Assembly: GCF_036409155.1 (NCBI RefSeq)
Contig: NZ_JAZGLW010000002.1
Coordinates: 682,001-746,000 of the forward strand
Origin: Mycobacterium sp. 050128
GTDB taxonomy: Bacteria > Actinomycetota > Actinomycetes > Mycobacteriales > Mycobacteriaceae
Length of the DNA stretch: 64,000 bases
Direction of reading: 5' to 3'
Below the pieces are notes generated by a model. The model ran no database searches. It saw only the letters and a program-made list of their open reading frames with translations, and was not told where the DNA came from. Position numbers and translations under genes: made by a program. Within the stretch, counting starts at the first letter, position 1. Each line of letters starts with the position of its first letter. Positions 12,205-13,246 of the stretch are shown one piece after another.

Positions 12205-12412
12205 GTCGTCTCCTGCGTGCCTACGGTCAGGCCGGGGACGAGGTCGCGCAGTCTGCGCGAGCACCGCGGTACCACCCCGCTTGCCGCGCTCACGCGCGGC
12301 CGCTCGATTCGGGCTGTGACGGGCCTACCCGTTCGGTTCTACTGGGCTGCCCCGATCGTGGAGCGGGCTGTTCTTCCGAAGGCTCCCCGGTGATATCCGG
12401 ATCGACGCCGTG
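12205..12412 (-). promoter_or_regulatory. Isoleucine T-box riboswitch upstream of ileS
   Basis: On the minus strand this leader contains GGAUAUCACCGGGGAGC, with AUC as the probable Ile specifier codon (plus positions 12392-12394), followed by CUUCGGAAGAAC. About 120 nt further on is the canonical T-box sequence GGGUGGUACCGCGG (plus 12264-12279), which pairs with the uncharged tRNA acceptor end. The ileS Shine-Dalgarno CAGGAGA lies just after it. Actinobacterial ileS T-boxes of this short-stem-I type are known to act on translation. No terminator-like U-tract is seen, which agrees with translational control. Confidence 0.9.
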
Positions 12413-12450
12413 CACAAGATTCTACGGACCACCGCAAATCCATCACTGCC

Positions 12451-12509
12451 GGCTCCAAGGGGCTAGCTGGCCGCACATCGTTTCTGCGGTCGACTAGCCC
12501 CTTGGAGCC
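12451..12509. terminator. Long perfect inverted repeat downstream of the Rv1535-like gene
   Basis: The arms GGCTCCAAGGGGCTAG (12451-12466) and CTAGCCCCTTGGAGCC (12494-12509) are exact 16-bp complements around a 27-base loop, with a smaller CCGCA/TGCGG stem nested inside. The repeat lies 22 bases past the stop of the Rv1535-like gene and about 40 bases before the ileS T-box leader, so the simplest reading is a rho-independent-type or attenuating terminator insulating ileS. There is no T-tract, which is common for mycobacterial terminators. A small transposon remnant is an alternative. Confidence 0.55.
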
Positions 12510-12531
12510 ATCAGCCGGGCCACATCCGTCG

Positions 12532-12765
12532 TCAGCGAACCTCGATGACCCCGACGCGCCACAGCGCCGCGTAGAGGTGACGGACGGGGACGCTCAGCAG
12601 GCGGGCGGCACCGGTCACCAGCGGGTCGCCGGCGCCGAAGTATCCGGCCTCGGCGGAAGGGGCCTTCCTGGGCGCGGGGGCCCGCGTGGGCGTGGTGTCG
12701 CGCACCACCCGCAGGTTGCGGACGGGCGCTACGGCAACTACTTCGTCGAAGAGTACTGCGGTCAT
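12532..12765 (-). CDS. Rv1535-like small conserved protein
   Basis: A 77-residue protein of unknown function. The segment V-R-N-L-R-V-V-R-D-T-T-P, a Pro/Arg/Ala linker, and the ending G-Y-F-G-A-G-D-P-L-V-T-G-A-A-R-L-L-S with L-Y-A-A-L-W-R-V-G-V-I match my memory of M. tuberculosis Rv1535, which also sits next to ileS. No signal peptide or clear transmembrane helix is seen; the C-terminal half could form an amphipathic helix. The ATG at 12765 has TTAGGAGA seven bases upstream. Expression is probably governed by the M-box upstream (about 310 bases from its 3' end) and perhaps by the 26-codon ORF between them, suggesting a role in Mg2+ limitation. Confidence 0.85.
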   Translation of the reverse strand: MTAVLFDEVVAVAPVRNLRVVRDTTPTRAPAPRKAPSAEAGYFGAGDPLVTGAARLLSVPVRHLYAALWRVGVIEVR

Positions 12766-12866: not shown

Positions 12867-12947
12867 CTAGCTCGAGGCGTCGGGCCGGAGGTCGGATTGG
12901 GACGGAGCTTGTCCTGGATATCCATCCGGACTGCCACTGGAACTCAT
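12867..12947 (-). CDS. 26-codon leader ORF between M-box and Rv1535-like gene
   Basis: An ATG at 12947 is preceded by GAGGAGGTGAG, an almost ideal complement of the 16S rRNA 3' end, with about seven bases of spacing. The ORF runs 26 codons to the TAG at 12867. The peptide begins M-S-S-S-G-S-P-D-G-Y-P and ends in D-L-R-P-D-A-S-S; it holds four prolines and three aspartates. The central codons GGA, TAT, CCA, GGA, CAA and GCT are A/T-ending and unusual for this GC-rich genome. It ends about 100 bases before the Rv1535-like start. I infer a regulatory leader peptide. The larger in-frame ORF starting at 13103 would run through the 3' part of the M-box and lacks this ribosome site. Confidence 0.55.
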   Translation of the reverse strand: MSSSGSPDGYPGQAPSQSDLRPDASS

Positions 12948-13074
12948 ACGTCCCTCACCTCCTCTACGGCCACGACGCGTGCGGTTACCCGCGCCTATCT
13001 GCGCGCACCAAAAGGAGTTCAGAATCCGGCGACCGCCGGAAATCCGCACCCCTCTCGTCAGAGCTTTGGCACCA

Positions 13075-13215
13075 CACGACGTGTCCGGAACTCCGGAAGC
13101 CACTTGGACTCAACCCTTAAGCCGGGAGGAGCTGTCCTGACCCGGGGCGTCTTTCGACGTTCGGGGTCAGTGGCCTGTGTTCGTGTAGCCGCCTCACCTA
13201 ACGAGGTGCTGCCGT
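13075..13215 (-). promoter_or_regulatory. M-box (ykoK-type) Mg2+ riboswitch
   Basis: The minus strand reads through the conserved M-box blocks in order: CGUUAGGUGAGGC (plus 13191-13204), ACACAGGCCACUGACCCC (plus 13163-13180), GUCGAAAGACGCCCCGGGUCA (plus 13137-13158) and GGCUUAAGGGUUGAGUCC (plus 13106-13123). These match the class consensus as I know it. M-boxes are reported upstream of Rv1535 in M. tuberculosis, so location agrees with sequence. High Mg2+ should switch the downstream genes off. No intrinsic terminator with a U-tract was seen between it and the leader ORF, so the output could be Rho-dependent or translational. Confidence 0.92.
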
Positions 13216-13217
13216 AA

Positions 13218-13246
13218 ATACTCCACGAGGCACCCGCCCCGGTCAA
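13218..13246 (-). promoter_or_regulatory. Putative SigA-type promoter for the M-box transcript
   Basis: On the minus strand TTGACC (plus 13241-13246) is followed after exactly 17 bases by GAGTAT (plus 13218-13223), which ends about seven bases before the M-box P1 region. The -35 is five of six to TTGACA; the -10 keeps the important A2 and T6 positions. The position fits transcription starting right at the riboswitch. The remaining stretch to the next gene at 13383 shows no other feature that I can name. Confidence 0.5.

What the first reader, a model, noticed from the sequence alone, without database searches (positions are those of the whole stretch)
12867..13246. M-box riboswitch followed by a strongly initiated 26-codon leader ORF ahead of the Rv1535-like gene
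Seen: on the minus strand a clear M-box is followed, about 130 bases later, by an ATG with a near-perfect Shine-Dalgarno (GAGGAGGTGAG) and a 26-codon ORF with four Pro, three Asp and a run of A/T-ending codons; the Rv1535-like gene starts about 100 bases further. Known: M-boxes sense Mg2+; in enterobacteria, Pro/acid-rich leader peptides such as MgtL let low Mg2+ destabilise translating ribosomes and control Mg2+ genes. Inference: this leader may combine an RNA Mg2+ sensor with a translation-based one, or the ORF may expose or hide a Rho site. I do not know of a described leader of this kind for this gene.
Basis: partly seen in the sequence, partly recalled or inferred. Interest (0 to 1): 0.75.

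Follow-up and report, generated by a model that had tools for sequence, protein, structure and literature searches.

The report
Self-closing leader ORF behind magnesium riboswitch
Behind a magnesium-sensing RNA switch in this mycobacterium lies a tiny gene, already described in relatives, whose second half appears to be kept by evolution mainly as an RNA flap that folds back over its own start signal.

Summary
In detail: an M-box (13212..13043, minus strand, 147 bits), a very strong Shine-Dalgarno (SD2), a 26-codon ORF (12947..12867) and the Rv1535-like gene. The leader kind is published: D'Halluin et al., RNA 2026 (PMC12810186), show for the pe20 M-box a translational platform, Rho termination and a conserved, translated 'uORF2', and propose the same for rv1535. 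An MgtL-like Pro/Asp sensor is not supported here: two of the four Pro and none of the three Asp are at well-conserved positions.

Not in the published text I read: the ORF's conservation looks mainly like RNA conservation. Third codon positions are hardly freer than the others, and codons 15-24 are complementary to the ORF's own start region (GGGACG:CGUCCC, GAGG:CCUC, GGCCG:CGGCC). This pairing exceeds synonymous recodings in 112 of 115 mycobacterial loci tested, is not seen in the downstream gene, and follows the start region across classes and genera (60 of 72). DSPYP-type uORFs also occur outside Mycobacterium; an acid/Pro 'MDDPPS' type follows M-boxes in two genera. I propose a leader ORF that closes its own start region unless a ribosome loads early. 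The fold is computed; its kinetic role is hypothesis.

The parts
13043..13212 (-). M-box riboswitch aptamer (RF00380)
   Evidence: cmscan 147.1 bits, whole model 1-169
13047..13056 (-). SD1 / anti-anti-SD (GAGAGGGGTG), 3' end of the aptamer
   Evidence: sequence; role from PMC12810186; pairs the anti-SD with P 0.76-0.98 when the whole leader folds freely
12867..13049 (-). uORF1 reading frame: GTG at 13049, here open and in frame into uORF2
   Evidence: poor conservation of uORF1 stated in PMC12810186
13025..13040 (-). hairpin H1 (TCCGGC-GGTC-GCCGGA) between SD1 and anti-SD
   Evidence: MFE folds
13010..13017 (-). anti-SD (CTCCTTTT), can pair SD1 or SD2
   Evidence: the shuffle test of this pairing was inconclusive
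12981..12992 (-). hairpin H2 (GCGG-GTAA-CCGC) between anti-SD and SD2; short here, mostly longer in class A relatives, covarying in class B
12954..12964 (-). SD2, GAGGAGGTGAG
   Evidence: pattern in 118 of 297 genomes
12867..12947 (-). uORF2, 26 codons plus stop, MSSSGSPDGYPGQAPSQSDLRPDASS
12949..12977 (-). 5' arm of the start-region hairpin (SD2, GGGACG and upstream CGTCGTGGCCG)
   Evidence: 22 pairs in the local MFE; helix GGGACG:CGTCCC 95.6% paired in 53 class A sequences
12878..12904 (-). 3' arm of the start-region hairpin = anti-TIR inside uORF2 codons 15-24 (CGTCCC...CCTCCGGCCCGACG)
   Evidence: GTCCC in 53 of 53 class A loci
12532..12765 (-). downstream Rv1535-like gene, 77 aa, own SD (TTAGGAGAC)
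   Evidence: relatives in 7 named loci; no Pfam match

Best explanation
This is the rv1535-type M-box leader with its uORF2. When Mg2+ is bound the aptamer holds SD1, the anti-SD pairs SD2 and no ribosome loads; when Mg2+ is scarce SD1 takes the anti-SD and SD2 is available (model of PMC12810186, compatible with folds of this window). What I add: the 3' half of uORF2 is a second, built-in anti-TIR. Once RNA polymerase is about 60 nt past the start codon, codons 15-24 pair with the region from upstream of SD2 to just before the start codon. A ribosome must therefore load early; a loaded ribosome keeps the flap open (and may shield the RNA from termination), while an unloaded transcript closes. 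In this reading the ORF is kept mainly for its RNA fold and its translation, and less for its peptide. Shown by computation: conservation of the ORF, excess and co-varying complementarity, order of folds in the window. Shown by others for pe20: translation of uORF2, Rho dependence, effect of anti-SD deletion. Inferred: the kinetic gate, the shielding and the effect on Rv1535.
For: uORF2 present behind 46 of 49 Mycobacterium M-boxes not chosen for it: 31 of 33 chosen by M-box alone and 15 of 16 from genomes without an exact pattern hit (one of the 15, L111, is divergent); read. Position 1/2/3 entropy in class A: codons 2-11 0.37/0.40/0.50 and, in the 45 of 53 that are 26 codons long, codons 12-26 0.71/0.94/0.71, against 0.75/0.53/1.09 in the Rv1535-like gene of the same loci. 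P(start region paired with codons >=13) against synonymous recoding: class A 0.70 v 0.34 (higher in 53 of 53), B1 0.65 v 0.33 (21 of 24), B2 0.73 v 0.46 (34 of 34), B3 0.66 v 0.38 (4 of 4); against codon-order shuffles higher in 51, 17, 33 and 4 (the 7 B0 loci were not given to it). Negative control, Rv1535-like genes: 0.08 v 0.15, higher in 12 of 53. Variable start-region letters pair their own ORF better than the median ORF of another class in 60 of 72; examples GACCACCGU:ACGGUGGUC and GACCGCCGU:ACGGCGGUC (read). Pairs formed 81.5%, 85.6% and 97.0% in A, B2 and B1, against 32-62% when slid. Window order of folds with the aptamer left out: anti-SD holds SD2 (0.73-0.82) up to +59 nt, then uORF2's 3' half (0.71-0.74).
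Against: Within-class covariation of the start-region hairpin is weak (8 pairs with double changes against 5.1 shuffled in A; 0 in B2; 2 against 0.9 in B1), as expected if SD2 cannot change but short of proof. B1 and B0 show no class preference in the swap test (3 of 7 each). In other genera 8 of 34 ORFs do not beat their recodings, and three (L225, L229, L230) show none. With the whole leader free SD2 is still only 0.15-0.56 unpaired before the flap exists. The anti-SD pairing was no stronger than shuffles. Published fusions that run to the end of uORF2 are well expressed, so the flap does not block translation in steady state. The recoding control also makes codons more GC-rich; codon-order shuffles, which keep composition, give smaller differences (B1 0.65 v 0.59). 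Position 3 is slightly more variable than 1 and 2 in codons 2-11, so some peptide constraint is not excluded.
Confidence: 0.45

Rival explanations
1. uORF2 encodes a functional small protein (Rv1805A/Rv1535A/Rv0115A family) co-regulated with Mg2+ genes; RNA features are secondary.
For: A D-S-P core and a length of 21-30 codons (one of 34) run through the 122 ORFs; uORF2 persists in three M-box-free loci (L123, L173, L174); the authors of PMC12810186 hypothesise a peptide role.
Against: Codon-position pattern is not clearly protein-like in either half; where residues change the third base mostly stays: class B codon 6 reads S, N, C, G, Y or R in 64 ORFs in register and ends in T in 63; in L036 a one-base shift before codon 15 changes the whole C-terminus while GTCCC stays; biofilm test negative in the paper.
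Confidence: 0.25
2. Published model is sufficient: SD1/anti-SD/SD2 switch plus Rho; complementarity inside uORF2 is a by-product of codons avoiding structure near the start and of pyrimidine-rich 3' codons.
For: Codons 2-12 are less structured than synonymous versions in 47 of 53 (A) and 68 of 69 (B); a strong purine SD pairs readily with any pyrimidine tract.
Against: Codon-order shuffles keep the pyrimidines and still pair less in 105 of 115; the complementarity extends to the variable letters between SD2 and the start and follows them across classes; the neighbouring gene shows none.
Confidence: 0.2
3. uORF2 is a translation-based Mg2+ sensor of the MgtL/MgtQ type: Pro/acid residues near the N-terminus destabilise the ribosome at low Mg2+.
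For: D5-S6-P7 core in 37 of 53 class A ORFs by D5; MD[DE]PPS uORFs in 11 loci of two other genera; in Salmonella mgtQ, Asp2 and Glu5 are needed (abstract of PMC8092293).
Against: In the window residue 5 is Gly; class A D+E ranges from 0 to 4; abortion in uORF2 at low Mg2+ would be expected (inference) to lower, not raise, expression if translation protects the message.
Confidence: 0.05

Closest known systems
Mbox-uORF2 leaders of M. tuberculosis pe20 (Rv1805A) and rv1535, D'Halluin et al. 2026 (PMC12810186)
   Same: Same aptamer family, SD1, anti-SD, SD2 and a uORF2 of the same motif; by gene order the window fits their rv1535 type (tRNA synthetase gene further downstream).
   Different: A word search of the main text has no 'hairpin', 'stem' or 'synonymous'; pairing between SD2 and uORF2's own 3' codons, the H2 hairpin and relatives outside Mycobacterium are not in the parts I read (1-4 of 6). 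Figures and supplement not seen.
B. subtilis ykoK M-box
   Same: Aptamer family RF00380.
   Different: Transcriptional off-switch with an intrinsic terminator, as told in PMC12810186; I ran no terminator scan here.
MgtL / mgtQ leader ORFs of enterobacteria
   Same: Short ORF inside stem-loops in a Mg2+ gene leader.
   Different: mgtQ translation frees the next gene's ribosome site (abstract); here the ORF covers its own start. Pro/acid positions of the window's ORF are not conserved beyond P7 and P11. MgtL is recalled, from no call.
Fold-back mRNAs in which later sequence covers the translation start (e.g. type I toxin mRNAs; recalled, from no call)
   Same: Start region paired with later sequence of the same message.
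   Different: There RNA processing opens the fold (recalled); here early ribosome loading is proposed, behind a riboswitch.

Membership tests
M-box riboswitch (RF00380) | match over the gathering score to the whole model | tested here: met
   147.1 bits v 44, positions 1-169
M-box riboswitch (RF00380) | Mg2+-dependent switching | not testable with these tools
   leader-dependent Mg2+ control of pe20 is told in PMC12810186
Mbox-uORF2 leader, rv1535 type | uORF2 with SD2 downstream of the aptamer, small gene of unknown function and then ileS after it | tested here: met
   class I tRNA synthetase by Pfam; no direct comparison with Rv1535 or its uORF2 was made
Mbox-uORF2 leader, rv1535 type | anti-SD able to pair SD1 or SD2 | tested here: inconclusive
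   both pairings appear in folds, but pairing energy is no better than shuffles (L001 z -0.8 and +0.8)
Mbox-uORF2 leader, rv1535 type | uORF2 translated; Rho-dependent termination | not testable with these tools
   published for M. tuberculosis; Rho effect marginal for rv1535
MgtL-like Pro/acid leader peptide | conserved Pro/acid codons near the N-terminus | tested here: not met
   P7 53/53, P11 47/53; D5 37/53 (Gly in the window), D8 33/53, P15 19/53, P22 6/53, D19 17/53, D23 29/53
Protein-coding small gene under amino-acid selection | third codon positions clearly freer than first and second | tested here: not met
   class A entropies 0.37/0.40/0.50 and 0.71/0.94/0.71 v 0.75/0.53/1.09 in the neighbour gene

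The most novel reading that the evidence does not exclude
M-box leaders across this bacterial family use a leader ORF as a one-chance lock: the ORF's own 3' codons close its start region about 60 nt after it is transcribed, so the Mg2+ state is read once, by whether a pioneer ribosome loads in time, and the ORF's conservation in M. tuberculosis relatives (Rv1805A, Rv1535A, Rv0115A) reflects this RNA lock, not a peptide. The lock may also work without the M-box (L123, L173, L174).
Probability: 0.35. Interest if true: 0.75.

Novelty: new variant of a known kind. Interest (0 to 1): 0.6.

Why it matters
A recent paper leaves the role of the conserved uORF2 open and looks for a peptide function. 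If its conservation is an RNA flap over its own start, peptide assays would stay negative, and the leader becomes a testable case of a riboswitch whose decision is fixed by an early ribosome before the message closes. It would also show that the leader-ORF part is older than Mycobacterium and can persist without the aptamer.

Tried and rejected
MgtL-like sensor: Pro/Asp conservation tested and rejected for the window's class. Peptide selection: codon-position test negative. Anti-SD energy against mononucleotide shuffles: inconclusive. The idea that conserved codons 2-7 form a hairpin with SD2 (consensus fold): dropped, since codons 2-12 are less structured than synonymous versions. First genus-wide pattern had a wrong spacer (2 of 297 genomes); repeated with a variable gap. 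Chance hits set aside: L073/L124, L130, L098/L182, and rows with CTG starts, a doubled start or identical letters (136 found, 122 distinct kept). A simple text pattern for aptamers missed many, so Rfam positions were used. The near-absolute use of AGT at Ser2 and Ser6 is only partly explained by an open start region.

Of the M-boxes, only the 30 given as loci plus those I fetched were read, and its table of places is cut short; so is that.

Full report
What is there. A class I tRNA synthetase gene, by place ileS, follows (Pfam); a sub-threshold T-box match lies between.

What is published. D'Halluin et al. 2026 (PMC12810186; outline, parts 1-4 of 6 of the main text and two word searches) describe four classes of mycobacterial M-box, a translational platform (SD1 / anti-SD / SD2), Rho-dependent termination, a well-expressed conserved uORF2 (Rv1805A) before pe20, the same platform proposed for rv1535, and an M-box-free homolog Rv0115A. 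For rv1535 they report that Rho depletion changed the pattern only marginally, and that the main termination site lies upstream of uORF2. They call the peptide specific for mycobacteria and its role unclear. So the finding as posed is known. My literature searches (open-licence PMC library) listed no other title on this leader's uORF; two further papers that name Rv1535 with M-box (PMC3207917) or Rv0115A (PMC10824437) were seen in listings only.

Distribution. RF00380 occurs in 153 of 297 genomes of the genus. The SD2-start pattern occurs in 118 of 297 (backward control 3 of 297); 116 of these 118 have an M-box. Of 33 M-boxes chosen by M-box alone (3 of the own genome; 30 best-scoring loci) 31 have uORF2 (not L002, whose site reads ATT, nor L028); of 16 from genomes without an exact pattern hit 15 do (not L118; L111 is divergent). 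Downstream genes vary: Rv1535-like, PE/PPE, a small 'LTxxERAN' ORF, MgtC (L105), a PRC-barrel protein (L106-L109). Among 64 fetched loci (L121-L184) Rfam finds no M-box over its gathering score in six; three of these are chance hits and three (L123, L173, L174) carry a clear uORF2. L173 and L174 have the same upstream gene (SGNH domain) and the same small downstream ORF as M-box loci such as L003 and L081, so the aptamer was lost or gained around a kept H2-SD2-uORF2 unit.

Not a protein-like gene. I kept 122 distinct uORF2 sequences: class A (rv1535 type, 53) and B (69; sub-classes B1 24, B2 34, B3 4, B0 7). In class A Ser2 is AGT in 51 of 52, Ser6 AGT in 52 of 53, Tyr10 TAT in 33 of 33, Arg9 CGA in 45 of 45; in the 64 class B ORFs in register Ser6 is AGT in 58 of 58 and, in the 64 counted, Tyr8 is TAT in 52 of 53. 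These are minor codons in the four window genes counted (AGT 6% of Ser, CGA 6% of Arg, TAT 17% of Tyr; GC3 88%). Position entropies in class A are 0.37/0.40/0.50 (codons 2-11) and 0.71/0.94/0.71 (codons 12-26, the 45 of 53 ORFs of 26 codons), while the Rv1535-like gene of the same 53 loci gives 0.75/0.53/1.09; class B codons 2-11 give 0.70/0.54/0.88 in 61 of 69 ORFs, somewhat more protein-like. Codons 2-12 are less structured than synonymous versions (47 of 53 in A, 68 of 69 in B), which explains the A/T-ending codons as an open start region.

The flap. In the class A alignment GTCCC inside codons 15-17 is invariant (53 of 53) and GGGAC stands before the start in 52 of 53. In the window the local minimum-energy fold joins -30..-2 with +43..+69 by 22 pairs: CGTCG/CGACG, GGCCG/CGGCC, GAGG/CCTC, GG/CC, GGGACG/CGTCCC. 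The GGGACG helix is 95.6% paired over 53 sequences; the whole is 81.5% paired against 35-50% when slid. B2 replaces GGGACG by GAGCGA and CGTCCC by TCGTTC or TCGCTC (85.6% paired, slid 32-62%, no double changes); B1 pairs through the start codon (97.0%, slid 35-57%, one pair GC 15 / AU 4 / GU 4). Probability that the start region pairs with codons >=13, native against synonymous, in A, B1, B2, B3: 0.70 v 0.34, 0.65 v 0.33, 0.73 v 0.46, 0.66 v 0.38 (higher in 53/53, 21/24, 34/34, 4/4, together 112 of 115; B0 not run); against codon-order shuffles higher in 51, 17, 33 and 4 (105 of 115). The downstream Rv1535-like genes give 0.08 v 0.15 (12 of 53). Class swap: A and B2 start regions prefer their own class's ORFs (-22.3 v -16.9; -18.6 v -16.9 kcal/mol), B1 does not (-19.7 v -22.5 with A).

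Across genera. RF00380 occurs in 35 of 121 genomes and 18 of 31 genera sampled in the family. In 43 M-box loci read (42 outside the genus), 36 have a short ORF after an SD-like site (35 of 42 outside). Fifteen resemble uORF2 by a loose text pattern (e.g. MKPGDSPYPS, MPSGDSPYSRP), against 'specific for mycobacteria'; eleven begin MD[DE]PPS. There the flap shows exchanged letters: L185 GACCACCGU:ACGGUGGUC, L187 GACCGCCGU:ACGGCGGUC. Using only the letters after GGAGGT up to the start codon, native pairing beats the median ORF of another class in 60 of 72 distinct start regions; B1 and B0 do not (3 of 7 each). Against recoding, 26 of 34 other-genus ORFs pair better (0.63 v 0.42). In seven of the 43 no short ORF was found; in L191 and L222-L224 an ORF that resembles MgtC by eye follows directly.

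H2. About 8 nt before SD2 in class B lies a five-pair hairpin with exchanged pairs (G-C 42 / A-U 20; A-U 58 / G-C 8; 96.2% paired, 32 double-change cells against 9.7 shuffled). In class A it is weaker (82.7%) and in the window only four pairs. It is kept in the M-box-free loci.

Order of events in the window. With the aptamer and SD1 left out (a stand-in for the bound state) SD2 pairs the anti-SD with 0.73-0.82 from its emergence to +59 nt, then the ORF's 3' half with 0.71-0.74. With the whole leader free, SD1 takes the anti-SD (0.76-0.98) and SD2:anti-SD is 0-0.03, but SD2 is unpaired only to 0.15-0.56 before the flap takes it. These are equilibrium folds of growing RNAs, not kinetics.

Mechanism. 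I favour: aptamer state decides whether SD2 is free during the roughly 60-nt gap; an early ribosome opens and keeps open the flap; otherwise the flap closes. The fold's conservation is reasonably supported, the gate is hypothesis, and a part for Rho in this rv1535-type leader is doubtful on the published data. Results against are listed in the Against line.

Noticed in passing
window 12250..12414 (-): Sub-threshold T-box match (23.4 bits, gathering 93, E 0.007) just before the ileS-like gene; fits the rv1535-type 'T-box/ileS' synteny told in PMC12810186.
   Followed up: no
window about 12437..12521: Long near-perfect inverted repeat (GGCTCCAAGGGGCTAG...CTAGCCCCTTGGAGCC) between the Rv1535-like gene and ileS; Rfam lists it only as a sub-threshold miRNA match.
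   Followed up: no
L002 (own genome, C2:260017-260189): Second M-box of the same genome has a uORF2-like frame whose start position reads ATT: either a rare start or a decayed ORF.
   Followed up: no
L123, L173, L174: uORF2 units without an M-box over the gathering score; L123 before PE/PPE genes, L173 and L174 beside an SGNH-domain gene and a small conserved ORF.
   Followed up: partly
L185, L187-L189, L192, L194, L202, L205, L208, L209, L211: uORFs beginning MD[DE]PPS behind M-boxes in two other genera, in L185 with its start 138 nt before that of MgtC: acid/Pro residues at 2-5 like Mg2+ leader ORFs of enterobacteria.
   Followed up: partly
L003, L081, L110, L114, L174 and others: Small downstream ORF family (...LTPQERAN...SPxAVxxASLGxHP) follows many M-boxes; found in 26 loci by tblastn, no Pfam match.
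   Followed up: no
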